Assembly (NCBI RefSeq): GCF_009184895.1
Contig: NZ_WESE01000003.1
Span: 434,001-498,000 of the forward strand
From: Nostocoides sp. F2B08
Lineage (GTDB): Bacteria; Actinomycetota; Actinomycetes; Actinomycetales; Dermatophilaceae
Direction of reading: 5' to 3'
DNA length: 64,000 bases
This document shows, in pieces, positions 3,215 through 17,824 of this stretch. The stretch's first letter is position 1. Each line of letters begins with the position of its first letter. The position numbers and the translations under genes are program-made. A model generated the notes under the pieces. That model was not told where the DNA came from. It ran no database searches and worked only from the letters and a program-made list of their open reading frames with translations.

Positions 3215-3931
3215 TCAGCGGTTCTTCAGCACCGTCAGCGCGACCAGGCGCGAGATGACCATGGCGATGTACAGCACGCCGCCGATCTGCTCGATCATCA
3301 CGAGCGACTGCGCGTGCGGGAGCACCGGCACGACATCCGAGAGGCCGACGCCGGTGAAGTTCGAGATGGACAGGAACAGCATCTCCTGCCAAGTGAGGAT
3401 CTCCTCGCCGGAGGATGAGGCGAAGCTGCCCGGCCAGAGGTACTGCACGGCCATGAACATGTACGCGAAGCCCCAGGCGATGACGGTGAAGGTCGCACCG
3501 ACGGCGAAGATCTCGTCCTTGGTGACCCAGTGGTCCTCGAACATGTAGGCGACCAGCGCATACGCGGTGTAGAAGTAGAAGATCCCGAGCAGGAAGTGCC
3601 CGCCGACCACCGCGAACGTCTTCTCCTGGTCGATGGCCCCCCAGATCTCGAGGATGACCGCGGGGAATCCGATGACGATCGAGACCCAGCTCAGCGCGGG
3701 TGTGCTGCGCACCGTCCACAGGGCGAGGAGCAGGACGATCGCCCCGAAGATCGAGACCGCAACCCGGCCGAACGTCGTCGGCTGCATGAAGGGGAAGAGC
3801 AGGATGCCGAGGAACTGGGTGAAGAGCAGCACCGCGGATGGCTGGTTGCGCGCCGTGCGGATCGCCTTGTGGGCGATGCTCGGCTGCGCGAAGGGGTCGT
3901 CCTGGATCTCGTCCGCGAATCGCAGAGGCAT
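3215..3931 (-). CDS. Two-helix ion-channel-like membrane protein
   Basis: A 238-residue membrane protein with about six hydrophobic segments. The last third (about residues 170-230) has the layout of an Ion_trans_2 potassium-channel pore: a helix, a short re-entrant loop reading [13 protein letters not shown], and a final helix. The selectivity-filter position reads TGVGLSD rather than the canonical TVGYGD, so K+ selectivity is uncertain. It resembles the ion channel family proteins seen in actinobacteria; no regulatory RCK domain is present. It stands alone, ending 44 nt from the rimO start and reading away from the redox-membrane gene at 4058. Its ATG lies in a GCATAC word. Confidence 0.7.
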
Positions 3932-4057
3932 ACCTCAAGAGTAGGACCCGTGCACGTTCTCGCCCCAGAGGTCGGCCCACCTCTCCCGCGGCCAGCCTGG
4001 GCCGTTCGGGTATGCGCTGGTCAGGCTCCGCGTCGACGTGCGGCGATAATGGGGGAC

Positions 4058-5173
4058 GTGTCGAACCCCGCCGCAGCCCTGACCCTCGTGCCCATCACGT
4101 TGGTGCTCGTGCTGCTCGTCAGTGCCGTCGCCAAGCTGAAGGCGCGGGCCTCGACGGCCTCGGCGGTGCGGCTGCTCCGGGTGCCGGGGTTCCTGAAGCC
4201 CGAGTGGGTGGCCGCCGTCCTGCCCCCGGCGGAGATCGTCCTCGCGCTCGGGATGCTCAGCCCCTGGCTGCCGCTGGCGCGCGTCGCCGCCGTGGCCGCG
4301 GTCATGCTGTTCGCGGCGTACTGGGTCGTCATCGCCCGGGCGATGACCTTCGACCCGCGGCCCTCGTGCGGCTGCTTCGGCCAGATCGGCGACCAGCGGG
4401 TGACCGCCAAGACACTGTGGCGGAACACCGTCCTGCTCGCCGGCGCCGCCGTCTTCGGGTGGATGACCTGGGCCCAGAGCGTGACGGTCTTCTCGTTCTT
4501 CTCGGACGCGACGACGCGGGAGTGGCTGCTGCTGCTGGGCGCCGCATACCTGGTCCTCGTGGCTTGGTTCGTGCTGTCCCCGCCCTCCCAGGTCAGGCAG
4601 CGCTCGAGCCGGCGCCGGAAGAACCGGCCCGCCGACGCCCACGATCACGCGGATGGGTCCGGGGCGACGGCGACTGCGGTTGACCAGAGCGAGCCGACCG
4701 AGGACGAGTACGTCCGCGTGCCGATCCCCGATGCGATCCTGCTCGACCCCGAGCGCGACCCGCACACCCTTCTCCAGCTGGCCGCTCAGCAGCCGGTTCT
4801 GCTCGTGTTCATCACGTGTGGATGCCCCTCGACCTACGAGACGTGGCGACGTCTGCCGGAATGGGCCGGACGGCTGCCGCAGGTCCGGGTGCTCGGCGTC
4901 GAGACCTACCAGCTCGGGGACCTCGACATCGCCGGGGTGCGCGAGCGGCTGTTCTACGACCCGGCGGGCAAGGCCTTCCAGGCGCTGACGATGCCCGGCA
5001 CGTCCTCGGCGATCCTGCTCGGCGCTGATCGGCTGGTCGCCGGCGGCCCCGTCCTCGGCAACGACGAGATCGAGGAGTTCGTCGCCGAGATCGAGGAGGC
5101 CCTGACGCAGGCCGCTCCCGCGGACCCGGTGCCCGCCGACGCCCCGCACGCGCAGGTGAGCGACACCGTGTGA
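4058..5173 (+). CDS. MauE/DoxX-type redox membrane protein with thioredoxin-like domain
   Basis: A protein of about 371 residues. The N-terminal half has four hydrophobic helices with a CGCFG pair ([12 protein letters not shown]), the arrangement of the MauE/DoxX redox-associated membrane family. A basic/acidic linker follows (about residues 185-225), then a thioredoxin-fold domain with a CGCP motif ([13 protein letters not shown]) and the sheet expected of the fold. It probably passes electrons between membrane and extracytoplasmic thiols; no partner is encoded nearby. A -10-like GATAAT at 4045-4050 lies 7 nt before the GTG at 4058, suggesting a leaderless GTG start; the ATG at 4049 would lie partly inside that box and is the alternative. 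Confidence 0.75.
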
Positions 5174-6040: not shown

Positions 6041-6296
6041 GGCGGATCGGACTGCCCTTCGTCGTCGTCTCGTGCGACGCGCCCCCCTGACGGCTCGTCC
6101 CAGGACTCTCGTCCCTGGATGTCAGGTATAACCCCGGCCCGGTCGACCTGACTAGGGACCTTTTACCCGGTCCAAGGCCCTTGTCAGGGATCATCGGAGA
6201 CGCCTACGGTGCTGGTCAGTGCCATTGCCGACCGGCTCGTCCGGTCCTGTGGCGGAGCTCGGCCCCGGACCCCGGCCATCGATGCCGGAGGCTGCC

Positions 6297-7805
6297 GTGA
6301 CCACACCGCCACGCCGATCCCCAGTCCGGGGAACGGCTCCCATGCGCGTCACACTCGTCTCCGAGGGCACCTACCCGTTCGCGATGGGCGGGGTGAGCGT
6401 CTGGTGCGACCAGCTCATGAGCGGCCTCGACGGCCACGAGTTCGAGTTCGTGGCGCTGACCGTCGACGGTTCCGCACAGCCGATGTGGCCCGCGCCCCCC
6501 TCGCTCACGCGGGTGCGCACCATCCCGCTGTGGACACCGTCGCCGCGAGGGCGGGGCCGGCTCGATCCCGGGCTCGAGGGCGCACTGGTCGACCTGTGCG
6601 CCGCCCTGGTCGAGCCGCTCCCCACCCAGCCGGTCCTCGCCCGCGCCGGGGTGGGGACGTTCCTCGGCGCACTCCGGCGGATCGGTGCGGGGATCCGCGA
6701 GCGGGGCAGCACCGCGGGCCTGTTCACCGGGGACCGGGCGGTCGAGATCCTCGGCACGGCCTGGGAGGACCGCACCGGTGAGCCGCTGACCCTCAAGGAC
6801 GCCCTGGACTGGGGTGACCTGCTCGAGCACCTGCTCAGGCCGTTGCAGGAGCCGCCCGTCGACAGCGACGTCGTGCACGCCTCGATGAACGGACCCTCGA
6901 TGCTCGTCGGGATGACCGCGCACTGGGAGCGGGGGACGCCGGTCGTGCTCTCGGAGCACGGCACCTACCTCCGGGAGCGCTATCTCCTCGAGGGCGACGC
7001 GCCGCTGACCTCCGCGGTGCGCTTCCTGCGCCTGAACTTCTACCGGCTCCTCTCCGCCGCGTCGTACCAGGTGGCGGCCGCGATCGCCCCGCACTCCCAC
7101 TACAACCGCCGCTGGCAGCTGCTCTGCGGGGCCGATCCGGACCGCATGCACACGATGTACAACGGCGTCGCGCTCGCCGACTTCCCGGTGGCCACCGCGG
7201 AGCCGGACGAGCCGACCGTGAGCTTCCTCGGGAGGATCGACCCGGTCAAGGACGTCCGCACCCTCGTGCGTGCCTTCTCGACCGTGCACCGCACCGTCCC
7301 TGGCTCCCGGCTGAGGATCTTCGGGGCCGCCCCGGTCGGGCAGGAGGCCTACCTGCGCGACTGTCAGGACCTCGCGAGCGATCTCGGGATGCAGAGCCGG
7401 GTCGCGTTCGAAGGACCGACCCGCAAGCCGTTCGACGCCTACCACAGCGGGTCGGTGGTCGCGCTCTCGAGCATCTCCGAGGGCTTCCCCTTCTCGATCG
7501 TCGAGGCCATGGCGTGCGGCCGGCCCGTCGTGTGCACCAACGTCGGCGGCGTCGCCGAGGCCGTCGGCGACGCGGGAGTCGTCGTGCCGCCCCAGGACCC
7601 GGATGCGCTCGGCGACGCGCTGCGCGCGGTCCTCGAGGACGACGAGCAGCGCGCCCGGATGGGGGCCCGCGCCCGGCTGCGGGTGCGGGACCGGTTCACC
7701 GTCGAGCGGTGGACGACCGCCTACGCCGACCTGTATGCACTGGTCACCTCCCAGGGTGACGGAACCACGGTCCAGCCCGCCCCTGCGGAGGTGACGACGT
7801 CGTGA
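6297..7805 (+). CDS. PelF-like GT4 glycosyltransferase
   Basis: A 502-residue GT4 retaining glycosyltransferase of the PelF/DUF3492 type. Evidence is the N-terminal VTLVSEGTYPFAMGGVSVW block (about residue 18), characteristic of PelF, and the C-terminal SEGFPFSIVEAMACGRPVV segment with the E-x7-E nucleotide-sugar site (about residues 394-412). In Pseudomonas, PelF is the cytoplasmic synthase that uses UDP-GalNAc/GlcNAc for the Pel polysaccharide. The GTG at 6297 is chosen because GGAGG at 6287-6291 sits 5 nt before it; the ATG at 6342 starts right at the domain and is a fallback. It opens a plus-strand operon, and its stop overlaps the membrane gene by 4 nt, fitting a synthase plus export partner. 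Confidence 0.88.
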   Translation: MTTPPRRSPVRGTAPMRVTLVSEGTYPFAMGGVSVWCDQLMSGLDGHEFEFVALTVDGSAQPMWPAPPSLTRVRTIPLWTPSPRGRGRLDPGLEGALVDLCAALVEPLPTQPVLARAGVGTFLGALRRIGAGIRERGSTAGLFTGDRAVEILGTAWEDRTGEPLTLKDALDWGDLLEHLLRPLQEPPVDSDVVHASMNGPSMLVGMTAHWERGTPVVLSEHGTYLRERYLLEGDAPLTSAVRFLRLNFYRLLSAASYQVAAAIAPHSHYNRRWQLLCGADPDRMHTMYNGVALADFPVATAEPDEPTVSFLGRIDPVKDVRTLVRAFSTVHRTVPGSRLRIFGAAPVGQEAYLRDCQDLASDLGMQSRVAFEGPTRKPFDAYHSGSVVALSSISEGFPFSIVEAMACGRPVVCTNVGGVAEAVGDAGVVVPPQDPDALGDALRAVLEDDEQRARMGARARLRVRDRFTVERWTTAYADLYALVTSQGDGTTVQPAPAEVTTS

Positions 7806-9265
7806 CCACCCAGCCGAGAGTCACCCGGCCACAGACCACCCAGCCGCGAACGACTCAGCCGCACCCTACGCACCCAGACGCGAAACGGGCGGAGACGCCG
7901 GGCGAGGTCGACGAGCTGCTGGACCGGATGGCCCCGACGCTCGCCTCGTCCGTCGACACCCTCCACGTCGCGGCGGTGCTGGAGTCCTCGGGTATCACCG
8001 ACGACCTGGCCAGGGACCGTTACGGCCACCCGGACGTCTTCGCCCTCGCCCGGACGCTGCGGGCTCCCTACTCCGAGCACGACGCGGGGGCCGTTCACCC
8101 CGGACTCCTCCCGGCACCGGCCCCGACCCGTCGATCGGACGGAGTCGCGGATGAGGACGACGCCGGCGGGGCGAGCAGTGTCGGACACGGGGTCATCTAC
8201 CTTCTCCCCGCCCTGTGCATGCCGGCACTGCTCGACCTCGTCGGCGTCACCCACGCCGCCCTGTCCCTCGTTGTCGGGGCGGCCGTGGGATGGCTCTGGG
8301 CGGTCCTGGCGACCTGGCGCGCCTACGGCGTGATGTCCGACGCCGGACGCACCGCTGCCGAGGACCACCTCCGCAGGTCGGTACTCGTCGGCGCGGGCGC
8401 CGGCGCCGTGGCCGGTGCGACCCTCGCCCTCGCCGGAGCCCCTCCCGTCGTCGGTGTGGTGACCGCTTCGGTGACGTTGGCCCAGCTCGGCACGACGCTG
8501 CTGTTCTTCCTCCGCCGCCGCGCCGAGCTGCTCCTCGTCCTGGTCGTCCAGGGCACCCTCGGACTCGCCAACCTCGTCGACCCCCTCGCCGTGCCCTCGA
8601 CCTGGGTGCTCGGCGCCTTCACCGTCGCCGCCCTCGTGCTGTTCCTGGCGGGCGGCGCGCTTCGCCGCCACCACGTCACGGCACCCCTCCTGCTCGCACC
8701 CGGACTCGGGCCCGTCCTCTGGTACGGCATGGCGAGCGTGGCGTTCCTGCTGATCCCGCAGGCCGGACTGCTCAGGGCCGGAGACGGGTCCCCGCTCGCG
8801 CTGGCGGGCCTCTTCCTCACCATGGGCCTCGTCGAGTGGCGTGGCGGCTCACTGTCGGCACGCCTGCGCCGGGAGCTGGCGACGCTGCACAGCCCGGCCG
8901 AGTTCCGCCGGCGCCGGGCCCTCCTCACGCACCGGGAGGCCTTCGCGTGCGCCGCCGTGGCGGCGCTGGCAGGAGCCGGCGTGCTGCTCCTCCTGCACGA
9001 CGCCGACCTCCTCACGACCACAGGCGTGCTCGTGGCGGCGGCGACGGTGCCGCTGGCCGCCGCATACCTCGTCTGCCTCGTGCTGGCCAACAGCGGAGCC
9101 CAGGTGTGGCTGGCCGCCGCCTTCACCGGCGGCGTCGTCGTCGAGAGCACCGCCTGGGGCGCGATGCGCGCCTCGCCGGCTCTGGCGTTCGTGATCGCGG
9201 CGGGCCTGCTGTTCGTCGCCGTCACGGTGGGCCTCCTCCGCCGACCGGTCGACCGCTTCCGATGA
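7802..9265 (+). CDS. Polytopic membrane protein of the polysaccharide locus
   Basis: A 487-residue protein that I cannot assign to a named family. The first ~25 residues are Thr/Gln/Pro repeats, followed by a soluble acidic segment (about 35-100) and then about twelve hydrophobic helices to the C-terminus. It overlaps the PelF-like gene by 4 nt (GTGA), so the two are made together. PelG, the membrane partner of PelF in Pel systems, also has about 12 helices. A role as polymer translocator or membrane anchor for the glycosyltransferase is therefore plausible but unproven; I see no PelG sequence motif. No catalytic motif is visible. Confidence 0.75.
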   Translation: MTTQPRVTRPQTTQPRTTQPHPTHPDAKRAETPGEVDELLDRMAPTLASSVDTLHVAAVLESSGITDDLARDRYGHPDVFALARTLRAPYSEHDAGAVHPGLLPAPAPTRRSDGVADEDDAGGASSVGHGVIYLLPALCMPALLDLVGVTHAALSLVVGAAVGWLWAVLATWRAYGVMSDAGRTAAEDHLRRSVLVGAGAGAVAGATLALAGAPPVVGVVTASVTLAQLGTTLLFFLRRRAELLLVLVVQGTLGLANLVDPLAVPSTWVLGAFTVAALVLFLAGGALRRHHVTAPLLLAPGLGPVLWYGMASVAFLLIPQAGLLRAGDGSPLALAGLFLTMGLVEWRGGSLSARLRRELATLHSPAEFRRRRALLTHREAFACAAVAALAGAGVLLLLHDADLLTTTGVLVAAATVPLAAAYLVCLVLANSGAQVWLAAAFTGGVVVESTAWGAMRASPALAFVIAAGLLFVAVTVGLLRRPVDRFR

Positions 9266-9287
9266 CACCACTCCGACCACCTCCACC

Positions 9288-9322
<35 letters not shown>

Positions 9323-9410
9323 GACCATGCACCCACCGACCGATCCACCCACCGACCACCGACCGATCCACCACCGACCAGACCGACTCTCACCTGACAG
9401 GGGTTCGTCC

Positions 9411-10268
9411 ATGCACGCAGTGATCCTCGCCGGAGGCAAGGGAATTCGACTCCGGCCCTATACCACCGCCCTGCCCAAGCCACTGGTCCCGCTCGGCGAC
9501 CACGAGGTGATGCTCGACGTCATCTTCGCCCAGCTGGTCCGGCAGGGGTTCACCTCGGCGACGCTGGCCATCCACCACCTCGGGCACCTGATCCAGGCGT
9601 ACGTCGGCGCCGGCTCCGAGTGGGGTCTGGAGGTCGACTACGCGACCGAGACCGAGCCGCTCGGCACCTTCGGGCCGCTGTTCTCCCTCAAGGACCGGCT
9701 GCCCGAGCACTTCCTCGTGATGAACGGCGACATCCTCACGGACCTGCCGTTCGGCGACCTGCTGACCGGCCACGTCGCCTCCGGTGCACCGCTGACCGTG
9801 GCGACCCACGTCACCGAGCACCAGGTGGAGTTCGGGGTGCTGGACCTGTGGGAACAGCGCATCTGCGGCTTCACCGAGAAGCCCCGCCTGACCTACCACG
9901 TGAGCATGGGCGTGTATGCGATGTCGCGCTCCCTGCTCGACCGCTACCAGCCGGGGACGCCGTGCGGCGCCGACGAGCTGATCCTCGATCTCATCGAGCG
10001 CCAGGACTACCCGGCGTGCTTCCCCTACACGGGGCTGTGGCGCGACATCGGGCGCCCGAGCGACTACGACGGGGTCAACTCCTGCTACGACGAGCTGCGT
10101 CCCATGCTCCTGCCCGAGCCGCTCGCCGCCGCTGCCGGACCCTCGGACCCGTGCCCGCAGGAGGGGGCTGCGGCGGTCCTCGCCACACCGGCCGCCGCGA
10201 CCTTCCCCTCGGCGCACTCCAACGGAACTCGACCGGCGTCGGCGCGCGAAGCCTTGGTGACACAGTGA
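9411..10268 (+). CDS. Sugar-1-phosphate nucleotidyltransferase
   Basis: A 285-residue NTP_transferase enzyme that couples a sugar-1-phosphate to an NTP, giving an NDP-sugar. The nucleotide-binding signature LAGGKGIRLRPYT starts at residue 5, and an NGD motif (VMNGDILTDLPFG) follows near residue 105. There is no left-handed beta-helix acyltransferase domain. The sugar specificity cannot be read from the sequence; given the neighbours, an amino-sugar or hexose precursor of the polymer is likely. The C-terminal ~40 residues are low-complexity. The start is the ATG at 9411, directly at the motif. GTGA overlap with the next gene shows coupling. Confidence 0.85.
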   Translation: MHAVILAGGKGIRLRPYTTALPKPLVPLGDHEVMLDVIFAQLVRQGFTSATLAIHHLGHLIQAYVGAGSEWGLEVDYATETEPLGTFGPLFSLKDRLPEHFLVMNGDILTDLPFGDLLTGHVASGAPLTVATHVTEHQVEFGVLDLWEQRICGFTEKPRLTYHVSMGVYAMSRSLLDRYQPGTPCGADELILDLIERQDYPACFPYTGLWRDIGRPSDYDGVNSCYDELRPMLLPEPLAAAAGPSDPCPQEGAAAVLATPAAATFPSAHSNGTRPASAREALVTQ

Positions 10269-11212
10269 CCCGGGTCCTGGTCCTCGGGGCCCACGGATTC
10301 CTCGGGTCGCACGTGGCCACCGCGGCGCGGTCCGAGCCGAGCGTCGACGAGGTGCTCACGCCGACCCGCACGGAGCTCGATCTCGATGCCGGGGTCCAGC
10401 CGATATCGCAGTCGCTCGATCGCATGGCACCCGACGTGGTGCTGATGTGCACCGGGCGTCTCGACGGGACCGCGTCCGAGCTCGTGGCCGCACATGCCGG
10501 CGCCGTCGCGACCCTTCTCGACGCGCTGGGCGGCCTCGGACGGCCGGTCCGGCTCGTCCGGCTCGGATCCGCAGGCGAGTACGGGCCGGTCACCTGGGGT
10601 GAGTCCGTCCGCGAGACCCATGCGACGTGGCCGGTGACGGCATACGGAGCCAGTCACCTCGCGGCCACCCACCTGCTCAGGGCGGCGTCCCTGCGCGGTC
10701 CGGTGAGCGGCACGACCCTGCGGGTCTTCAACCCCGTCGGGGCCGGTGGCCACGGGCCCAGCCTCGTCGGCCAGGTGGCGGCGCGCATCCGCAACGCCCA
10801 GGTGGAGGGAGCCGACGAGATCGTGACCGCCCCGCTGACCACGTGGCGCGACCTCGTCGACGCCGAGGACGTCGCCTCGGCCGCGATCGCGGCCGCACTC
10901 GTCCCGGGCCCGCCTCCCGCGGTGGTCAACATCGGCTCCGGGCGGGCCATCGCCGTCCGTGAGGTCGTCACTCTCCTGGCCGAGCTTGCCGGATGGCGCG
11001 GCACGATCCGCGAGGACGGCCCCGCTCCGTCCCGCTCGGCCGGCGTCGGGTGGATGCAGGCCGACATCGCCCTGGCCGCCGAGAGCCTCGGCTGGACCCC
11101 CCGACGCACCCTCCTCGACTCGCTCCGCGAGATCTGGGCCGACAGCCATCATCAGCCGGCGGCCGCCACCTCGGCATCCATCGCCTCACCACACCAGAAG
11201 GACGCATCATGA
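10265..11212 (+). CDS. NAD-dependent epimerase/dehydratase (extended SDR)
   Basis: A 315-residue extended SDR with the Rossmann motif GAHGFLGSH at residues 8-16 and a catalytic-type YGASH segment near residue 128. In that segment the Lys of the classical YxxxK is replaced by His, so the chemistry may be altered. The rest of the fold matches NDP-sugar epimerases and reductases (LRVFNPVGAGGHGP, VNIGSGRAIAVREVV). It starts at a GTG overlapping the preceding stop and ends overlapping the dehydrogenase start. It probably modifies the NDP-sugar made by the upstream gene; exact substrate unknown. Confidence 0.8.
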   Translation: MTRVLVLGAHGFLGSHVATAARSEPSVDEVLTPTRTELDLDAGVQPISQSLDRMAPDVVLMCTGRLDGTASELVAAHAGAVATLLDALGGLGRPVRLVRLGSAGEYGPVTWGESVRETHATWPVTAYGASHLAATHLLRAASLRGPVSGTTLRVFNPVGAGGHGPSLVGQVAARIRNAQVEGADEIVTAPLTTWRDLVDAEDVASAAIAAALVPGPPPAVVNIGSGRAIAVREVVTLLAELAGWRGTIREDGPAPSRSAGVGWMQADIALAAESLGWTPRRTLLDSLREIWADSHHQPAAATSASIASPHQKDAS

Positions 11213-12606
11213 CACTCACCGTCGGAGTCATCGGGCTCGGCTACGTCGGCCTGACCCTCACCGCCGCGCTGGCCCGCGCCGGGCACACCGTCTACGGGGT
11301 CGACACCTCGCCCGTCGTCCTCGAGGGCGTGAGGTCGCGTCGGCTGCACCTCCAGGAGCCCGGGGTCCAGGAGACGCTGGAGGACTGCCTGGGCACCACC
11401 GTGCACGTCGACGAGACGCTGCCGGTCCGGAGCTACGACGCGGTGTTCATCGCGGTCAACACGAGCATCGACAAGCGCCACGAGGTGCGCCTCGGACCCC
11501 TGCTGGCCGCCACCGCCTCGGTCGCGGAGCGCTGTCCGCGGGACACCCTCGTCGTGGTCCGCAGCACCGTCCCGATCGGGACGACGCGCACGATGGTCCA
11601 TCCCCTGTTGCAGGAGGCCTGGGGGCGTCCGCTGCTCTGCATGGCGCCAGAACGCACCATCCAGGGCCAGGCCCTGCGCGAGATCGTCGAGCTGCCGCAG
11701 GTCGTCGGCGGGATCGACGAGCGGAGCCTGGAGGCGGGAGCGGCGCTGTTCGAGCAGATCTCCAGCACCGTCGTCCCCGTGTCGTCGACCGACGCGGCCG
11801 AGATGGTCAAGCTCACCAACAACGCGCACACCGACCTGATCTACGGGTTCGGCAACGAGGTCGCCCTCATCGCCGGCCAGCACGGGGTGGACCCCCTCGA
11901 GGTCATCGCGGCCTGCAACCTCGACTACCCGCGACCCGACCTGTCCCGGCCGGGCTTCGTCGGAGGCGCCTGCCTGACCAAGGACCCCCACATCCTGATG
12001 GGCTGCACCCCCGGCTACAGCACGCCGATGGTCCGGGCCGCCCGCCAGGTGAACGAGGAGCTGCCGCGTCACATCGCGCTGCAGGTCCTGCGGCTGCTGC
12101 ACGAGTCCCGTGGCTCCACCACCGGGGGAACCGTCGCGGTGCTCGGGTGGGCCTGCAAGGGCACCCCGCCCACCGACGACGTGCGCGGCACCGCCGTCGA
12201 GACGCTCGTGCCGCCGTTGCTCGCAGCCGGCGTCCGGGTGCTCGGCCATGACCCGCTCGTGCCCGACCCGATCATCCGAGAGCTCGGCGGGGAGCCCGGC
12301 GGGCTCGAGGCCACCCTCCGCGGCGTCGACGGGGTCGTCGTCGTGACCGACCATCCGCTCTACCGGAGTCTCGACCTCGAGAGCCTCTCGCCCGACGGCC
12401 CTCCCTCGTTCGTCTACGACGTCTGGCGGATCCTCGACGAGCCCATGCTCACCGGGGCCGGAATCGCCTACGCCAGCGTGGGGCACCGGGCCGGAGCCAG
12501 GGACCGGAGGTCGCGCCCCGGAGCCGCTGATCCGACGAACGGCCACTCCGTCCGGCCCTCGCTGACGACGCGCCTCTCCACGGAGAGTGCGGAGGTGCCG
12601 GCATGA
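11209..12606 (+). CDS. UDP-N-acetylmannosaminuronate-type NDP-sugar dehydrogenase
   Basis: A 465-residue member of the UDP-glucose/GDP-mannose dehydrogenase superfamily, which oxidises C6 of an NDP-sugar twice to a uronic acid using NAD. Visible are the N-terminal Rossmann motif GVIGLGYVGLTL, the central helical domain (AEMVKLTNNAHTDLIYGFGN), the catalytic Cys near residue 255 in GGACLTKDP, and a C-terminal UDP-binding domain (VAVLGWACKGTPPTDDVRG). The pattern is closer to WecC/VipA-type amino-sugar dehydrogenases than to Ugd. It implies that an (N-acetyl)aminouronate is part of, or a precursor for, the product. About 50 disordered residues at the C-terminus are unusual. ATGA overlaps on both sides. 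Confidence 0.87.
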   Translation: MTLTVGVIGLGYVGLTLTAALARAGHTVYGVDTSPVVLEGVRSRRLHLQEPGVQETLEDCLGTTVHVDETLPVRSYDAVFIAVNTSIDKRHEVRLGPLLAATASVAERCPRDTLVVVRSTVPIGTTRTMVHPLLQEAWGRPLLCMAPERTIQGQALREIVELPQVVGGIDERSLEAGAALFEQISSTVVPVSSTDAAEMVKLTNNAHTDLIYGFGNEVALIAGQHGVDPLEVIAACNLDYPRPDLSRPGFVGGACLTKDPHILMGCTPGYSTPMVRAARQVNEELPRHIALQVLRLLHESRGSTTGGTVAVLGWACKGTPPTDDVRGTAVETLVPPLLAAGVRVLGHDPLVPDPIIRELGGEPGGLEATLRGVDGVVVVTDHPLYRSLDLESLSPDGPPSFVYDVWRILDEPMLTGAGIAYASVGHRAGARDRRSRPGAADPTNGHSVRPSLTTRLSTESAEVPA

Positions 12607-13670
12607 ACAACCTGATCCTCGGCGGTGCCGGCTTCATCGGCGCCCACCTCGCGGCGCGGCTGCTGCGCGACGGACGTCGCGTGACGATCGTCGACGACTT
12701 CTCGCGCGGCACGCGCGACGCGGCGATCGCGGACCTCGAGCGGTCCGGAGCACGGCTGGTCTCGGCCGACCTCACCCGCCCGGACCCCTGGGTCCTCCTC
12801 GGCCAGGACTGGGACGAGGTCTACCACCTCGTCGCGGTCGTCGGAGTCCGCAACGTCGAGCAGGACCCGCTGCGCTGTATGCGCGTCAACACCCTCGCCA
12901 CCCTCAACCTGATCGACTGGGTGCCCCGAAAGGCCCGCGTCTTCTACTCCTCCACCAGCGAGGTCTATGCCGGCGGCGTCGCTCACGGCATCGTCCCCGT
13001 CCCGACCGCCGAGAGCGCGATGGTCGTGGTCGACAAGCCCACGGCTCCCCGCGCCGCCTATGCCGTGAGCAAGCTGTGGGGCGAGGCCGCGCTGTCCCAC
13101 GCCGGTGCCGCACGCGGCTTCGACTGGGTCACCGGACGGTTCCACAACGTCTACGGCCCGCGCATGGGCATGAGCCACGTCGTCCCCGAGATGCTCGCCC
13201 GCGCGGCGGCCGGCGAGACGCCGTTCCGGGTCTGGGGCGCCGACCAGACCCGAGCCTTCTGCTACGTCGACGACGCCGTGGAGGCGGTCGTCCGCCTCAT
13301 GCGGACCCCGCGCGCGACGGGACGCATCGTGCACATCGGCACGACCGCGGAGACGCACATCATCGATCTCGCCCGGATCGTGCTCTCCGCGGTCGGTGTC
13401 GACCCTCCACTGCAGGTGCTCCAGGGCCCCGACGGCTCGGTGAGTCGACGGTGCCCCGACACCTCCCTCCTCTACCGCCTGACCGGGCACGTCCCTCGCA
13501 TCGAGCTGCCGGAGGGCGTGCGCCGCACGTGGCAGTGGTACTCCACGAGCGGCCTCAACGCCAGGGAGGGCGAGGCCGGGAGATCGGACCCCGCGGCCGT
13601 GGCGGCGACCACGTCGACCGCACCCACCGCACCTGCCCCCGTCGCCTACGCAGCCCCGCTGGCCCCCTGA
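12603..13670 (+). CDS. NAD-dependent sugar-nucleotide epimerase (extended SDR)
   Basis: A 355-residue extended SDR of the NDP-sugar epimerase/decarboxylase group. Motifs are GGAGFIGAH (residues 7-15), DDFSRG after beta2, YSSTSEVYAGG, and the catalytic YAVSK pair near residue 155. A Pro/Ala/Thr-rich tail of about 40 residues follows the fold. Candidates include a UDP-GlcNAc/GalNAc C4-epimerase, which would supply the UDP-GalNAc needed by a Pel or galactosaminogalactan synthase. The sequence alone does not prove this. It is coupled to the dehydrogenase by ATGA overlap and followed by the deacetylase gene 27 nt later. Confidence 0.83.
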   Translation: MNNLILGGAGFIGAHLAARLLRDGRRVTIVDDFSRGTRDAAIADLERSGARLVSADLTRPDPWVLLGQDWDEVYHLVAVVGVRNVEQDPLRCMRVNTLATLNLIDWVPRKARVFYSSTSEVYAGGVAHGIVPVPTAESAMVVVDKPTAPRAAYAVSKLWGEAALSHAGAARGFDWVTGRFHNVYGPRMGMSHVVPEMLARAAAGETPFRVWGADQTRAFCYVDDAVEAVVRLMRTPRATGRIVHIGTTAETHIIDLARIVLSAVGVDPPLQVLQGPDGSVSRRCPDTSLLYRLTGHVPRIELPEGVRRTWQWYSTSGLNAREGEAGRSDPAAVAATTSTAPTAPAPVAYAAPLAP

Positions 13671-13697
13671 TCCCGCACACGTCCAAGGAGTGACCCC

Positions 13698-15848
13698 GTG
13701 ACCACCACCGCGCGCCGGCTGCTGCTGGCTCCTCTCGCCCTCGCCCTTCCATTCGCTCTCGTCTTCCCCACCGGTGCCGTCGCCGAGGCGCCCCCGGGGG
13801 GTGACTCCGGCGACGTCGTGCTGGAGCCGATCCCGGTCGAGCCGCCGGCCGTCGAGACCGAACCCGAGCCGCTCCCGGTCAAGACGGGCAGGGTGCCGCT
13901 CGACTCCACGACGAGCACCTCCGACTCGACGACCGCCGAACCGGCGCCGACGCTGCAGTCTCTGACCGCAGCGGCCGCGCCCGTGGCGCCCACCAAGCGC
14001 GTCGAGTTGCGTGCCCTCGTCCTCGCGGTCGACGGCGCCGACCTGGCCCTCCCCCCATGGGTCGCGATGCTCGACCGGGTGGGCGCCGCATACGACGTCG
14101 TCAACGTCGCCTCGACGCCCCTGACGCGCGAGATGCTCGTGGGAGCCGACGGGGTCGGCCGTTACAACGCCGTCCTCCTCACGAGCACGGGTCTGCTGCA
14201 CGACGCCGGCGGCTCGTGGGTGAGTGGACTGGACACGACCGAGTGGAACACGCTCTGGGACTACGAGCGTGAGTATGCGGTGCGCCAGGCGACCCTGTTC
14301 GGCAGCTACGGCACGTGGCCGGAGGAGACGTGCCTGCGCTCGCGCAGCGAGGGCGGAGTCGACGAGGCCGGGATCACCGCGACCCTGACCCCGCGCGGGA
14401 CGCAGATCTTCGACTACCTCAACCCCGCGGCCCAGATTCCGGTCCAGCTGTCCTGGGTGTACCGCAACGAGGTGGCACCGGGCTGCTCGGCCGAGCCGGT
14501 CCTGGTCTCCGGCTCCGACGTGCTCGGCTCGACGATGGTCACCCCCGACGGTCGCGAACAGGTCGCGCTGAGCTTCTCGAGCAACGAGCACCTCATGCAG
14601 GCCCACCTGCTGACCTACGGGATGTTCCGGTGGGCCAGCCGGGGGGTGTTCCTCGGCGAGCAGCGGCACTTCCTCAAGCTCGACATCGACGACTTCTTCA
14701 ACTCCAGCGACCTGATGCTCGAGGACCTCACCTTGGACCCTGACGGCTTCCGGATGACGGGCGACGACGCCCTCAACATCAGGTCGGCCCAGAACGCGCT
14801 GCGGACGGCGCACCCGCTCGGCAGTCAGTTCCGGCTGTCCCTGGCCTACAACGGCGAGGGTGTCAACACCTCGACGGTGGCGAGCTGCGCAGGCGGCGGG
14901 GAGAGCGCCCTCGTGGCCGCCTCCCTGTGCATCAAGTCCGACGTGGAGTGGATCAACCACACCTTCAGCCACCCGAAGCTCAACTTCACCGACTACCGGA
15001 CGACCCGCAACGAGATCACCCGCAACCGTCAGGTGTCCACGGCTCTCGGGCTCGGCGCGCCGAACTCGGTGCTCAAGACCGGTGAGTACTCAGGCCTCGG
15101 GGTCTACCACCCCGACCCCACCAACGACATCGACCCGCCGACCGACTACGGGCTGATGGCCTCGAACCCGAACCTGATCCGGGCGGCGAACGACACCGGC
15201 TCGCGCTACCTCCACGGCAACATGTCGTTCGCGAGCCACGTGCCGGCCTGCTTCAACTGCAACATCGCGCACCCGATGGACACCCGGGTCAAGATCGTGC
15301 CGGACTGGCCGACCAACATCGCCTACTTCAGCTCCACCCCGGCGCAGGAGACGGCGTTCTACAACTGGTTCTACGGCCCCAACGGCAAGTTCCCCTACTG
15401 GCCGGTGGACCAGACCTACGAGCAGGTCATCGACCACGAGAGCACCGGCGTCCTGCACCGCATCGCGATGGGTTCGATGTACAGCAACACGATGCACATC
15501 CCGAACCTGCACGACTACGGCGGCGGCCGGACCCTGGCGTTCGACTGGGCCGACGCGGTCATGGACGAGTACGAGTCCTACTACTCCGTGCCCCTGCTCT
15601 CACCGACGTGGACCGCGCTCGCCGGGGCGACCGACGTGCGCACGGCGCATTTCGCGGGCAGGAACCGGGTGCGGGCCATCTGGGACCCGGCCGCCAAGGT
15701 CATCCGGTTCACCTCGCCGGTGGCTGCACAGGTCCAGGTCACCGGGCTGCAGGGACCGAAGCAGGTCACCTACGGCAGCAGCCTGATCTCCGTCGTGACC
15801 CTCAAGGCCGGAGCCACGTCCTCGTGGACCGCCCGGCCCCTGCCCTGA
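13698..15848 (+). CDS. Secreted Agd3-like (CE18) polysaccharide deacetylase
   Basis: A 716-residue secreted protein with a signal peptide (about 1-30) and a Pro/Thr/Glu-rich linker to about residue 95. A domain resembling the carbohydrate-binding part of Agd3 follows (about 100-320), then the deacetylase barrel and a C-terminal beta domain. Metal/catalytic residues of a CE18-type enzyme are visible: LDIDDFF at about 328-334 and HTFSHP at 421-426 (H-x3-H). Agd3 is the Aspergillus fumigatus enzyme that de-N-acetylates galactosaminogalactan and makes it cationic and adhesive. The GTG at 13698 has AAGGAG 7 nt upstream. Placement between precursor genes and a GH114 gene fits polymer maturation outside the cell. 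Assignment is by remembered motifs and should be checked by profile search. Confidence 0.8.
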   Translation: MTTTARRLLLAPLALALPFALVFPTGAVAEAPPGGDSGDVVLEPIPVEPPAVETEPEPLPVKTGRVPLDSTTSTSDSTTAEPAPTLQSLTAAAAPVAPTKRVELRALVLAVDGADLALPPWVAMLDRVGAAYDVVNVASTPLTREMLVGADGVGRYNAVLLTSTGLLHDAGGSWVSGLDTTEWNTLWDYEREYAVRQATLFGSYGTWPEETCLRSRSEGGVDEAGITATLTPRGTQIFDYLNPAAQIPVQLSWVYRNEVAPGCSAEPVLVSGSDVLGSTMVTPDGREQVALSFSSNEHLMQAHLLTYGMFRWASRGVFLGEQRHFLKLDIDDFFNSSDLMLEDLTLDPDGFRMTGDDALNIRSAQNALRTAHPLGSQFRLSLAYNGEGVNTSTVASCAGGGESALVAASLCIKSDVEWINHTFSHPKLNFTDYRTTRNEITRNRQVSTALGLGAPNSVLKTGEYSGLGVYHPDPTNDIDPPTDYGLMASNPNLIRAANDTGSRYLHGNMSFASHVPACFNCNIAHPMDTRVKIVPDWPTNIAYFSSTPAQETAFYNWFYGPNGKFPYWPVDQTYEQVIDHESTGVLHRIAMGSMYSNTMHIPNLHDYGGGRTLAFDWADAVMDEYESYYSVPLLSPTWTALAGATDVRTAHFAGRNRVRAIWDPAAKVIRFTSPVAAQVQVTGLQGPKQVTYGSSLISVVTLKAGATSSWTARPLP

Positions 15849-15888
15849 GGTCGCCGAGGTAACGGTCGACGTAGAGGATGGCGCCGCG

Positions 15889-16851
15889 ATGCCTCGCACG
15901 GTCGTCCTGCTGGCGGTGCTGGCGGCGGGGGTGACACTGATCGCTCTCGCCGCCGGCGGAGGACTCGCGCGGTCCGAGAAGGCCGGACCACCGCATACCG
16001 AACCCGCCGTGGCGATCCGCCAGGCTGCGGCCACGCAGGTCGGCAGCTGGGTCTACCAGCTGCAGGGCTACCCCGATGGCCGGCTGGACGAGATCGCCGC
16101 GTCCCCGCACGACCTGGCGGTCATCGACCTGGCCCGGGACGCGGGCTCGAGCTGGTTCTCGCGTCTGGAGGTCGGGCGGGTGCGGGCGAGCGGCAAGGTC
16201 GTGCTCGCGTACTTCGAGATCGGGTCGATCGAGGACTTCCGGCCCGAGGCGGCAGCCGTGCGTGCCTCCCCTCAGGGTCTCGTCCTCAACCGCTGGGAGG
16301 ACTGGCCCGAAGAGCACTTCGTGCGCTATTGGGAGGAGGACTGGTGGGAGCTCGCGGTCCGGCCGCGCCTGGACCGGGCCCTGGCCGCGGGCTTCGACGG
16401 CGTCTATCTCGACACCCCGCTCGCCTATGAGGAGATCGACAAGTCGCTCGTGCCGGGGACGTCGCGGACCGAGCTCGCGCGCCGTATGGTGGCGCTCATC
16501 GCCCGGATCTCCGCCTATGCCAAGGAGCGCCGGCCGGGGTTCTGGGTCGTCCCGCAGAACTCGCCGGAGCTGCGGGTCGTGCGCGGCTACCTCGAGGCCA
16601 TCGACGGGATCGGCATGGAGGAGCTCTTCGTCAAGGCGACGGACGAGCCGTGCACGGAGGACTGGTGCGAGGAGAACCTGGAGCACACCCGGGCCATCCG
16701 ACAGGCCGGCAAGCTCGTGCTCGCCGTCGACTACGCCGACCGACCGGATCTGGTCATCAGCACGTGCCGGCGGTATGCGCAGGAGGGCTTCGCCGGGTAC
16801 GTCGCCTCCCTCGCGCTCGACTCGATCCGTCCACCGTGCGGCAGCGTGTGA
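15889..16851 (+). CDS. Secreted GH114 endo-alpha-1,4-polygalactosaminidase-like protein
   Basis: A 320-residue protein with an N-terminal signal or anchor helix (about 1-27) and one TIM-barrel domain of the GH114 / TM1410-MJ1477 family. Family hallmarks are WVYQLQGY near residue 46, VVLAYFEIGSIED with Glu at about 110, and FDGVYLDTP with Asp at about 175, the likely catalytic pair. GH114 enzymes, including fungal Ega3, cut alpha-1,4-linked galactosamine. Such hydrolases commonly accompany polymer synthases to trim the product. It ends the operon, and its stop codon lies inside palindromic element copy B. The start ATG has a GAGG about 11 nt upstream. Confidence 0.85.
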   Translation: MPRTVVLLAVLAAGVTLIALAAGGGLARSEKAGPPHTEPAVAIRQAAATQVGSWVYQLQGYPDGRLDEIAASPHDLAVIDLARDAGSSWFSRLEVGRVRASGKVVLAYFEIGSIEDFRPEAAAVRASPQGLVLNRWEDWPEEHFVRYWEEDWWELAVRPRLDRALAAGFDGVYLDTPLAYEEIDKSLVPGTSRTELARRMVALIARISAYAKERRPGFWVVPQNSPELRVVRGYLEAIDGIGMEELFVKATDEPCTEDWCEENLEHTRAIRQAGKLVLAVDYADRPDLVISTCRRYAQEGFAGYVASLALDSIRPPCGSV

Positions 16852-16888
16852 GTCAAGAGGTGCGATGGCACCGGTTCACTCACGCGAT
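16846..16888. repeat. 43-nt palindromic element, copy B (convergent gene junction)
   Basis: Same length and arms as copies A and C: GTGTGAGTCAAG left, GGTTCACTCACGCGAT right. An inner hairpin GGTGC-gatg-GCACC is also present. The left arm holds the TGA of the GH114 gene; the right arm holds the TGA of the convergent AbiEi-like gene. Likely a bidirectional terminator. Confidence 0.72.
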
Positions 16889-17824
16889 GTCGACTCGCGG
16901 CGCGACGCATGCCGGACGACAGGGCACGATGCGTCCGCGGTAGCCGCGGGTCCGCAGCGTGGCGTAGATGTCGGCGGCGAGCTCGCACGGACCGAACTCG
17001 ATGTCGGCGTAGCCTGCCCGCAGCGTGATGCGCCCGCTGCGTGCGGCGTGGCGGTCGCGAAGGCGGTCACGGTGGATCGACTCGCCACCGTGGGCGAGCA
17101 GCCCGTCGCTCTCGAGGATGACGCCGTACGCCTCCCACTCGGCGTCGCGTCTGACCCTGGCGCCACCCTGGACAGCCCTGGTCTGCAGGGTCGGGGTCGG
17201 GAGCCCGTGGGCGATGACGACGCGCCTGAGAGACCGAAGCTCGAGCACGCTCTCGACACCGTGGGCCACGGGGTCGAGTGCCGTCGAGATGACGCGGCGG
17301 TGCGGATGCCGGCGGAGCCGGGTCAGCTCGAGCTCTAGCTGCCCGGTGGTCACCACTCCCCGATGGACCCATCTGGCGACGAGGTGGACGGTCTCACGCC
17401 ACGTAACGCCCGGCCGGGCGGTCAGGTCGAGCACGGTCGTGGCGGCTGGCGTCACCGGTAGGCCTCCGCGCTCGACGACGTCGAGGCTCCGCCGCCGGCC
17501 CACGCGGGTCCCGGTGAGCCGCTGGACCTGGCGCCCGACCATCGCGCCGGTGATCACCTGTGGCTGCTGGGTCTCGACGCCATGGAGATGCGCGGCGGTC
17601 TCGAGAGTCAGCGCGCCCCCGGGGCCGAGGCGCAGCGCCAGCGCGTGCGCCCGCGACTCCCAGGTCCACGGCGCGTGGCGAATCCGATAGAGCCCTCGCG
17701 TGATCCGCTCCCACCGACCACTCGTGACGCGCCACCGCACTGCATCGCTCGTCAGGCCCGACGCCAGGGCCTGGTCGTGGGACACCACGCCGTGCTGGCG
17801 GCGCAGGATGGCATCGAGACTCAT
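16880..17824 (-). CDS. AbiEi-like N-terminal domain with DUF559/Vsr-like C-terminal domain
   Basis: A 314-residue protein. The first ~55 residues look like the winged helix of AbiEi-type (type IV) antitoxins (RRQHGVVSHDQALASGLTSD, then GLYRIRHAP). The C-terminal ~100 residues resemble a DUF559/Vsr-like nuclease fold, with RRDAEWEAYGVILESDG and a following H-R-D-R-x2-D cluster. This architecture is common and often multi-copy in Micrococcales, typically without an AbiEii toxin, and none is present here. Role unknown; defence or DNA repair has been suggested for the fold. It converges on the GH114 gene and is followed upstream by palindromic copy C. Confidence 0.7.
   Translation of the reverse strand: MSLDAILRRQHGVVSHDQALASGLTSDAVRWRVTSGRWERITRGLYRIRHAPWTWESRAHALALRLGPGGALTLETAAHLHGVETQQPQVITGAMVGRQVQRLTGTRVGRRRSLDVVERGGLPVTPAATTVLDLTARPGVTWRETVHLVARWVHRGVVTTGQLELELTRLRRHPHRRVISTALDPVAHGVESVLELRSLRRVVIAHGLPTPTLQTRAVQGGARVRRDAEWEAYGVILESDGLLAHGGESIHRDRLRDRHAARSGRITLRAGYADIEFGPCELAADIYATLRTRGYRGRIVPCRPACVAPRVDIA

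What the first reader, a model, noticed from the sequence alone, without database searches (positions are those of the whole stretch)
6297..16851. Actinobacterial locus joining a PelF-like synthase with Agd3-like deacetylase and GH114 hydrolase
One plus-strand run carries a PelF-like GT4, a ~12-TM protein, a nucleotidyltransferase, two SDR epimerases, an aminouronate-type dehydrogenase, a secreted CE18/Agd3-like deacetylase and a secreted GH114 protein. Established knowledge: PelF makes GalNAc/GlcNAc polymer in Pel; the fungal galactosaminogalactan cluster contains GT4 Gtb3, deacetylase Agd3 and GH114 Ega3. Inference: this locus makes a secreted, partly deacetylated galactosamine polymer using fungal-type tailoring enzymes with a bacterial synthase. 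The uronate dehydrogenase suggests the product also contains an acidic sugar, making it zwitterionic.
Basis: partly seen in the sequence, partly recalled or inferred. Interest (0 to 1): 0.88.

Follow-up and report, generated by a model that had tools for sequence, protein, structure and literature searches.

The report
Pel/GAG-like polymer locus, altered deacetylase
An actinobacterium carries an eight-gene locus that probably makes, exports, partly deacetylates and trims a sticky amino-sugar polymer related to Pel and the fungal polymer GAG; the kind is already known in bacteria, but here the deacetylase has a rewired active site that travels with sugar-making genes suggesting a building block other than plain galactosamine.

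Summary
The eight genes are real, tightly packed and travel together: of 79 named loci fetched by one deacetylase search (best-scoring, so biased to close relatives) 49 hold all eight and 60 at least the seven other than the hydrolase. The basic idea (bacterial agd3 operons with a GT, a multi-TM protein and GH114) was published in 2020 (PMC7229062). Corrections: the "GH114" is GH191, closest to Env-GH191, which cuts Pel; the 12-TM protein has the MOP-flippase fold but is not PelG by sequence; the second SDR resembles a UDP-glucuronate decarboxylase and the first a 4-keto reductase, so a zwitterionic polymer is not the best reading. New as far as searched: 82 deacetylase rows carry Lys460 with Asp/Cys/Gly536 where 30 carry Val/Ile with Arg (Agd3 R613, needed for activity), none mixed. 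Lys460 falls where CE4 enzymes keep their base-coordinating arginine. The swap coincides with the dehydrogenase/decarboxylase pair: 6 of 6 searchable exceptions carry the pair elsewhere; 0 of 24 Arg-type genomes or records hold an SDR2 orthologue. It may be one evolutionary event. Some Streptomyces and Deinococcus use a LegB-type dehydratase instead. The building block is probably C6-modified (inference). New variant of a known kind.

The parts
6219..7805 (+). PelF-family GT4 glycosyltransferase (putative polymerase); other possible starts at 6297 and 6342 read off the translation
   Evidence: NCBIfam PelF 159.7 bits over cut-off 100; DUF3492; EX7E E421/E429 in 66 of 66 aligned rows
7802..9265 (+). 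12-helix MOP-superfamily membrane protein with ~110-residue N-terminal part (putative exporter in PelG's place)
   Evidence: No Pfam/NCBIfam family; AlphaFold2 model pLDDT 84.9, pTM 0.76; MATE/WzxE/MurJ-type fold, Z 13.6-22.1 in the 50 rows listed; distant homologue L033 hits PF16933 PelG at E 2.4e-4, below cut-off
9327..10268 (+). sugar-1-phosphate nucleotidyltransferase (NTP)
   Evidence: PF00483 113.5 bits; nearest NCBIfam models man-1-P guanylyltransferase, archaeal GlmU-like, MurU, all far below cut-off
10265..11212 (+). SDR1, 4-keto-reductase-like extended SDR
   Evidence: Profile best match GDP-6-deoxy-lyxo-4-hexulose reductase 2pk3, 126 bits; YxxxK lysine replaced by His or Arg in 51 of 64 rows
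11209..12606 (+). UGD, nucleotide-sugar 6-dehydrogenase
   Evidence: TIGR03026 286 bits; C255/K258/D259 in 61 of 61 rows; PDB profile order
12603..13670 (+). SDR2, UDP-uronate decarboxylase-like SDR
   Evidence: Profile best match human UXS1 166.6 bits; T118-S119-E120, Y153/K157 and R217 in 61 of 61 rows
13698..15848 (+). secreted CE18-like polysaccharide deacetylase with CBM87 domain, variant Lys460/Asp536 active site (secretion signal judged by eye)
   Evidence: PF25115 and PF25116 over cut-off; model pLDDT 87.3; Agd3 6nwz Z 33.9, rmsd 2.6, 563 residues aligned; D331, D332, H421, H425, H600 in 69 of 69 rows
15889..16851 (+). GH191 endo-galactosaminidase-like hydrolase, N-terminal hydrophobic segment judged by eye, catalytic D175/E244
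   Evidence: 9ep5 (Env-GH191) 268 bits, TM1410 about 100 bits, Ega3 22.7 bits; D/E in 51 of 51 rows

Best explanation
The locus is a synthase-dependent exopolysaccharide system of the Pel/galactosaminogalactan kind. A PelF-family cytoplasmic GT4 polymerises an N-acetyl amino sugar; a MOP-fold membrane protein moves the chain out; a secreted CE18-like enzyme removes some acetyl groups, making the chain cationic and adhesive; a GH191 enzyme outside the cell cuts deacetylated stretches. NTP, UGD, SDR2 and SDR1 supply a dedicated nucleotide sugar by activating a sugar phosphate, oxidising C6, probably decarboxylating it, and reducing the resulting 4-ketone. The polymer therefore probably contains a C6-modified sugar, most likely one that has lost C6, and not only GalNAc. 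Versions in some Streptomyces and in Deinococcus have a LegB-type 4,6-dehydratase beside the same NTP-SDR1 pair instead of UGD+SDR2. Shown here: gene content, predicted folds, conserved catalytic residues, co-occurrence, the two-state active-site swap. Inferred: all reactions, the polymer, its repeat unit and its role.
For: Profiles and cut-offs. Folds of the deacetylase and membrane protein. Hydrolase closest to Env-GH191, reported active on Pel with preference for GalN-rich oligosaccharides (PMC12054363 passages). 49 of 79 loci with all eight genes and 60 with at least the seven other than the hydrolase; two Thermaceae loci (L107, L109) are among the seven-gene ones. NTP-SDR1 constant while the C6 enzymes swap: LegB-NTP-SDR1 near PelF in L031, L035, L129, L130, L131 and on Streptomyces californicus and Deinococcus plasmids. 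SDR2 nearest UXS1, SDR1 nearest a 4-ketoreductase: both routes could lead to a 4-keto intermediate that SDR1 reduces. Swap: K460 with D/C/G536 in 82 rows, V/I with R in 30, no mixed state, one fragment uncovered.
Against: No sugar specificity is shown; UGD scores nearly alike to a UDP-ManNAc dehydrogenase and CalS8. The sugar enzymes could make a side-branch, a co-monomer or the precursor of another glycan, with GalNAc still the backbone. SDR1 lacks the usual YxxxK lysine in 51 of 64 rows. By NCBIfam SDR2 scores higher with LegB and RmlB models than with a UDP-xylose synthase model, all far below cut-off. PelG kinship of the membrane protein is not significant (hhalign probability 1.3%). T. 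maritima GH191 showed no activity on GAG (PMC12054363). The K state is essentially one clade (81 rows, support 100; Thermus row apart on a long branch), so its link to UGD+SDR2 may rest on one event. Only the 80 best matches were kept, which favours the window's own clade.
Confidence: 0.72

Rival explanations
1. One reading: a galactosamine polymer also containing an amino-uronic acid, hence zwitterionic. UGD oxidises UDP-HexNAc and SDR2 is a C4 epimerase of the uronate.
For: UGD has the ER motif (61 of 61 rows; meaning of the motif recalled) and its best solved match is a UDP-ManNAc dehydrogenase (245 bits); similar UGD-SDR2 pairs sit together in Azospirillum polysaccharide clusters.
Against: SDR2 is nearest to UDP-GlcA decarboxylase UXS1 and carries T-S-E in 61 of 61 rows, residues of UXS/ArnA decarboxylases and of 4,6-dehydratases, not of the uronate C4 epimerases I know (motif meanings recalled). 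CalS8, a non-HexNAc enzyme (recalled), scores nearly as high for UGD.
Confidence: 0.2
2. A plain GalNAc/GalN polymer (Pel/GAG itself); the sugar genes feed another glycan or a primer and only happen to be co-located.
For: PelF, CE18 and GH191/GH114 families act in GalNAc polymer systems (PMC7229062, PMC12054363); loci without any sugar module in the fetched DNA exist (Kocuria plasmid; L028-L030).
Against: UGD+SDR2 lie beside, or in 6 of 6 searched genomes elsewhere from, the K-type deacetylases (only the Thermus plasmid record has none); the SDR2 orthologue was not found in 24 of 24 Arg-type genomes or records, five of them plasmids only (UGD was not searched in these 24). The deacetylase active site changed together with the pair.
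Confidence: 0.25
3. The K460/D536 deacetylases are inactive or act on something else because Agd3 R613 is lost.
For: R613 is integral for Agd3 activity (PMC7229062) and is D, C or G here.
Against: The five other catalytic residues are kept in 69 of 69 rows; a lysine stands at the position of the CE4 MT3 arginine in 82 of 82 rows that lost the arginine and in 0 of 30 that kept it; fold matches Agd3 at Z 33.9.
Confidence: 0.15

Closest known systems
Bacterial agd3 operons (Bamford et al. 2020, PMC7229062)
   Same: CE18 deacetylase, cytoplasmic GT, multi-spanning membrane protein, GH114-like gene, in Actinobacteria among others
   Different: What I read (section 13 whole, other passages; figures and supplements not held) does not mention a C6-oxidising/decarboxylating module, GH191, a MOP fold or the K460/D536 swap, though it says CM3 is conserved only in most bacterial homologues
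Fungal galactosaminogalactan cluster (Uge3, Gtb3, Agd3, Sph3, Ega3)
   Same: Glycosyltransferase, CE18 deacetylase, galactosaminidase
   Different: Separate exporter-like protein, GH191 instead of GH114, no spherulin-4 family hit among the eight cluster proteins at E 0.001, four nucleotide-sugar genes instead of one epimerase
Gram-positive Pel operon pelDEA_DAFG (Whitfield et al. 2020, PMC7112168)
   Same: PelF-family synthase beside a multi-span exporter-like protein, plus a deacetylase
   Different: No PelD or PelE found among scanned neighbours; deacetylase CE18-like, whereas B. cereus PelA_DA founds CE26 (PMC13254593 passages); membrane protein not PelG by sequence
GH191 endo-galactosaminidases (PMC12054363)
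   Same: Closest solved homologue is Env-GH191; catalytic Asp/Glu conserved
   Different: Here encoded beside a synthase and a deacetylase; activity untested

Membership tests
CE18 (Agd3 family) | Match to Agd3 CE and CBM87 profiles over curated cut-off | tested here: met
   PF25115 38.0 and PF25116 38.8 bits against 27.6
CE18 (Agd3 family) | Three-domain Agd3 fold | tested here: met
   Predicted model against 6nwz: Z 33.9, rmsd 2.6, 563 residues aligned of 665; next NDST1 Z 24.9
CE18 (Agd3 family) | Catalytic motifs CM1, CM2, CM4 (D-D, HxxxH, H) | tested here: met
   D331, D332, H421, H425, H600 in 69 of 69 rows, aligned with Agd3
CE18 (Agd3 family) | CM3 arginine (R613) coordinating the base | tested here: not met
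   D536 in the window; D/C/G in 82 rows, R in 30. So it is called a CE18-like variant, not a standard CE18
CE18 (Agd3 family) | Deacetylates alpha-1,4-GalNAc | not testable with these tools
   needs enzyme
GH114 (Ega3) | Closest to a characterised GH114 | tested here: not met
   Ega3 22.7 bits, E 4.2e-4, against Env-GH191 268 bits
GH191 | Closest to a defining member and catalytic Asp/Glu kept | tested here: met
   9ep5 268 bits; 9ep5 is Env-GH191 by the paper's Table 1; D175/E244 in 51 of 51 rows
GH191 | Endo-galactosaminidase activity | not testable with these tools
   needs enzyme; one of two tested members was active (PMC12054363)
PelF | NCBIfam PelF equivalog over cut-off | tested here: met
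   159.7 bits, cut-off 100
PelG | PF16933 match | tested here: not met
   No match for the window protein; hhalign with a six-row PelG alignment probability 1.3%; only distant homologue L033 hits, at E 2.4e-4, below cut-off
MOP superfamily transporters | 12-helix MOP fold | tested here: met
   12 membrane helices by my count of the DSSP elements; the 50 listed matches are MATE or other MOP transporters, WzxE or MurJ, Z 13.6-22.1, one row being described only as 'protein A'
Pel operon | PelD/PelE in the operon | tested here: not met
   None in Pfam scans of 20 ORFs, some of them overlapping alternatives; B. cereus PelD is said to escape sequence profiles (PMC7112168), so weak
UDP-uronate decarboxylase (UXS/ArnA) | T-S-E, YxxxK and the UXS/ArnA arginine | tested here: met
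   61 of 61 rows; UXS1 best profile match 166.6 bits. Motif roles recalled; not diagnostic alone, as 4,6-dehydratases share them
UDP-uronate decarboxylase (UXS/ArnA) | NCBIfam equivalog cut-off | tested here: not met
   UDP-4-keto-pentose/UDP-xylose synthase model 74.7 bits against 294; LegB, RmlB and GalE models score higher but also far below cut-off

The most novel reading that the evidence does not exclude
The cassette makes a hitherto unknown class of cationic biofilm polymer: a Pel/GAG analogue whose amino sugar has lost C6 (an N-acetylated 2-amino-2-deoxy-pentose), with a sister class in some Streptomyces and Deinococcus built from a 6-deoxy amino sugar. The deacetylase changed its catalytic wiring (base-coordinating cation moved from the CM3 arginine to a lysine at the CE4 MT3 position) when the substrate changed.
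Probability: 0.22. Interest if true: 0.8.

Novelty: new variant of a known kind. Interest (0 to 1): 0.58.

Why it matters
Pel and GAG are cationic matrix polymers. If actinobacteria and Thermales make relatives with another amino sugar, polymer chemistry in these groups is wider than assumed, and the paired synthase, deacetylase and hydrolase are a ready toolkit. The two-state active site gives a clean natural experiment on how a polysaccharide deacetylase relocates the residue that tunes its catalytic base, testable with a few point mutants.

Tried and rejected
Rejected: GH114 assignment. Rejected: novelty of the deacetylase-synthase-GH combination as such (PMC7229062). Not upheld: membrane protein as PelG by sequence. 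Led nowhere: TM12 scan of viral contigs, 12 pattern matches and no relative; paper search PelF+GH114+gene cluster gave 1 paper, seen in listing only; DUF3492/PelF search mostly unrelated acronyms; Actinoplanes+PelF+exopolysaccharide 0 papers; UDP-XylNAc search 1 review, listing only; LegB search 7 papers, listing only; polygalactosaminidase+actinobacteria+exopolysaccharide 1 paper, listing only; Agd3+UDP-glucose dehydrogenase 0 papers; promoter/terminator scan no better than shuffles. The PF25115 profile misses divergent deacetylases in Streptomyces-type genomes, so its 6 of 396 is a lower bound. Rows dropped: one deacetylase fragment without the motif region (L111) stays in the table as uncovered and was left out of the tree; two Thermus ORFs that are not homologous were removed. 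One pair of rows is identical (L034 and L124), so the 30 Arg-type rows hold 29 different sequences. Mended on re-checking: 9ep5 as Env-GH191 was confirmed from the paper's table, and the search of the window for the second hydrolase, whose command had failed, was run.


Full report
Observation. Eight open frames run on the plus strand from 6219 to 16851. Four junctions overlap by 4 bases and the other three have gaps of 61, 27 and 40 bases, as expected of one transcription unit. Pfam and NCBIfam give: PelF-family GT4 (159.7 bits, cut-off 100), a membrane protein without family, a sugar nucleotidyltransferase (NTP), an extended SDR (SDR1), a nucleotide-sugar dehydrogenase (UGD), a second SDR (SDR2), an Agd3-like deacetylase with its CBM87 domain, and a PF03537 hydrolase. 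The flanks hold unrelated genes: an ANTAR/GAF protein before, an AbiEi-type regulator, FtsK, RNase J and DHDPS after.

The hydrolase. Against solved structures the window protein scores 268 bits with 9ep5, about 100 bits with T. maritima TM1410 and 22.7 bits with Ega3. 9ep5 is Env-GH191 and, with TM1410, defines family GH191 (PMC12054363, passages and Table 1). Env-GH191 was reported to degrade Pel with preference for GalN-rich oligosaccharides; for the Thermotoga enzyme no binding or cleavage of GAG oligomers was seen. The catalytic pair aligns with D175/E244 and is kept in 51 of 51 rows. So the label GH114 should be GH191.

The membrane protein. An AlphaFold2 model from 27 sequences (pLDDT 84.9, pTM 0.76) has 12 membrane helices by my count and matches MATE and other MOP transporters, WzxE and MurJ at Z 13.6 to 22.1 over 324-361 residues in the 50 listed rows. 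PelG by sequence is not shown: the window protein has no PelG match, one distant homologue (L033) hits PF16933 at E 2.4e-4 below the cut-off, and profile-profile comparison gives 1.3%. It occupies PelG's place beside PelF.

The deacetylase. The model (pLDDT 87.3) matches Agd3 6nwz at Z 33.9, 2.6 A over 563 residues; NDST1 follows at 24.9. The residues corresponding to Agd3 D377, D378, H510, H514 and H668 are D331, D332, H421, H425 and H600, kept in 69 of 69 rows. The residue corresponding to R613, reported as integral for activity, is D536.

The swap. In 113 deacetylase rows from the window and the loci, position 460/536 is K/D in 74, K/C in 7, K/G in 1, V/R in 29, I/R in 1; one fragment does not cover the sites; no mixed state occurs. 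Two Arg-type rows are identical, and 12 loci contribute two K-type copies each, so rows are not independent. In the alignment with Agd3, position 460 falls one residue before the "PP" of the MT3 motif. In CE4 enzymes MT3 reads RPPYG and its arginine bridges the catalytic aspartate, whereas in Agd3 the proline pair stays and the arginine comes from elsewhere (PMC10967932, passages). The simplest reading is that this clade supplies the base-coordinating cation from the CE4 position as a lysine. That is inference: no coordinates could be measured. The K-type rows form one clade of 81 rows with support 100, except a long Thermus branch (FastTree), so one or two origins. Bamford et al. already noted that CM3 is conserved only in "most" bacterial homologues.

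Neighbourhoods. Of the 79, 49 hold all eight genes, 11 lack only the hydrolase at the score used, 8 hold smaller subsets, and 11 none at the scores used. Carriers include Micromonosporaceae, Streptosporangiaceae, Pseudonocardiaceae, Rhodococcus rhodnii and two Thermaceae. The deacetylase precedes PelF on the same strand in 65 of 65 of these loci that have both; in the window it follows SDR2. A second divergent PF03537-type gene lies in 50 of 62 UGD+SDR2 loci (60 named ones plus L026 and L027); in the window a search for it found only the GH191 gene itself. In 58 relatives of the window's genome (itself included) the membrane protein and PF25115 were found only in the same two genomes; in 396 phylum genomes in 12 and 6, sharing 4.

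Link to the sugar genes. Of 76 deacetylase rows from loci with UGD+SDR2 (window included), 75 are K-type and one is the fragment; 9 of 9 rows from LegB loci are V/R; of 28 rows with neither on the piece, 21 are V/R or I/R and 7 are K-type. Six of these seven lie in genomes that could be searched whole (three of the pieces were cut by contig ends): all six carry an adjacent SDR2 (527-590 bits) and UGD (698-775 bits) orthologue on another stretch, two of the UGD and one of the SDR2 matches with a stop reported inside. The seventh, Thermus brockianus, was searched on its plasmid only, without a match. In 24 Arg-type genomes or records (five of them plasmids only; one further locus not held) 13 had SDR2-type matches but the best was 175 bits; UGD was not searched there. 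Shared ancestry could produce this, so it is an association, not proof of a common substrate.

What the sugar genes may do. SDR2 as a profile is nearest to human UDP-GlcA decarboxylase UXS1 (166.6 bits) and has T-S-E, Y/K and the arginine in 61 of 61 rows; by NCBIfam it scores best with LegB and RmlB models, far below cut-off. SDR1 is nearest to GDP-6-deoxy-lyxo-4-hexulose reductase (126 bits), though its YxxxK lysine is His or Arg in 51 of 64 rows. UGD is nearest to a UDP-ManNAc dehydrogenase (245 bits), then CalS8 (233), Cap5O (203) and UDP-Glc dehydrogenases (186 and less). In L031, L035, L129, L130 and L131 (unnamed Streptomyces-type genomes), on a Streptomyces californicus plasmid (L146) and on Deinococcus plasmids (L145, L148, L149) there is no UGD-SDR2 pair; a LegB-type 4,6-dehydratase (L031: 448.9 bits with TIGR04180, cut-off 475; plasmid ones 467-645 bits against L031's) stands beside the same NTP and SDR1. 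In L129-L131 the membrane protein was not recognised by the single-sequence search, and in L130 no deacetylase was found on the piece. LegB-NTP-SDR1 also occurs in L137 and L140 without a deacetylase, so the trio is not exclusive to this system. Other Streptomyces (L105, L117) carry UGD+SDR2. Both variants could deliver a 4-ketone altered or lost at C6 for SDR1 to reduce. From this I infer, without direct evidence, that the polymer contains a C6-modified sugar. Loci without any sugar module on the fetched DNA exist, such as a Kocuria rosea plasmid with deacetylase, PelF, membrane protein, spherulin-4 and galactosaminidase genes, a set closely parallel to the fungal GAG genes.

What is known. 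Bacterial agd3 operons, with GH114 and a GT plus multi-spanning protein, are in print (PMC7229062; section 13 read whole, other passages). Gram-positive Pel operons are in print (PMC7112168, Discussion read; PMC7112194, passages). I found no description of the C6 module, the GH191 link or the K460/D536 swap in the searches; these cover open-licence papers only, I saw most of their hits as listings, and figures and supplements were not held.

Verdict. Real, conserved and biologically coherent; core idea already known; variant features new as far as searched.

Noticed in passing
L147 (Kocuria rosea plasmid NZ_CP126484.1): A minimal five-gene GAG-like set (CE18-like, PelF, membrane protein, spherulin-4, galactosaminidase) lies between two transposase-family genes with the same protein accession on a mobilizable plasmid.
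   Followed up: partly
window 10265-11212 and homologues: SDR1 lacks the usual catalytic lysine of YxxxK in most rows (His 45, Arg 6, Lys 13 of 64); consequence unknown.
   Followed up: no
L050:19637-20329, L109:13632-14339 and others: A second, divergent PF03537-type hydrolase of about 230 residues lies in 50 of 62 UGD+SDR2 loci; not found in the window.
   Followed up: partly
L155, L156: A UGD-SDR2-like pair sits in Azospirillum polysaccharide clusters with GT4 genes, so the pair may work as a unit elsewhere.
   Followed up: partly
L106, L115 (gammaproteobacterial MAGs): Deacetylases close to this clade but Arg-type, with no PelF recognised in the fetched DNA.
   Followed up: no
L069, L091, L092, L094, L096, L098-L103, L114: Twelve loci, mostly Pseudonocardiaceae, carry two tandem deacetylase genes, both K/D type.
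   Followed up: partly
control genome Thermotoga maritima: Matches DUF3492, PelG and PF03537 profiles, so a PelF/PelG/GH191 system may exist there.
   Followed up: no
window 3530-5173 and 16880-17824: Flanking genes: a MauE-domain protein upstream and an AbiEi-type regulator downstream.
   Followed up: no
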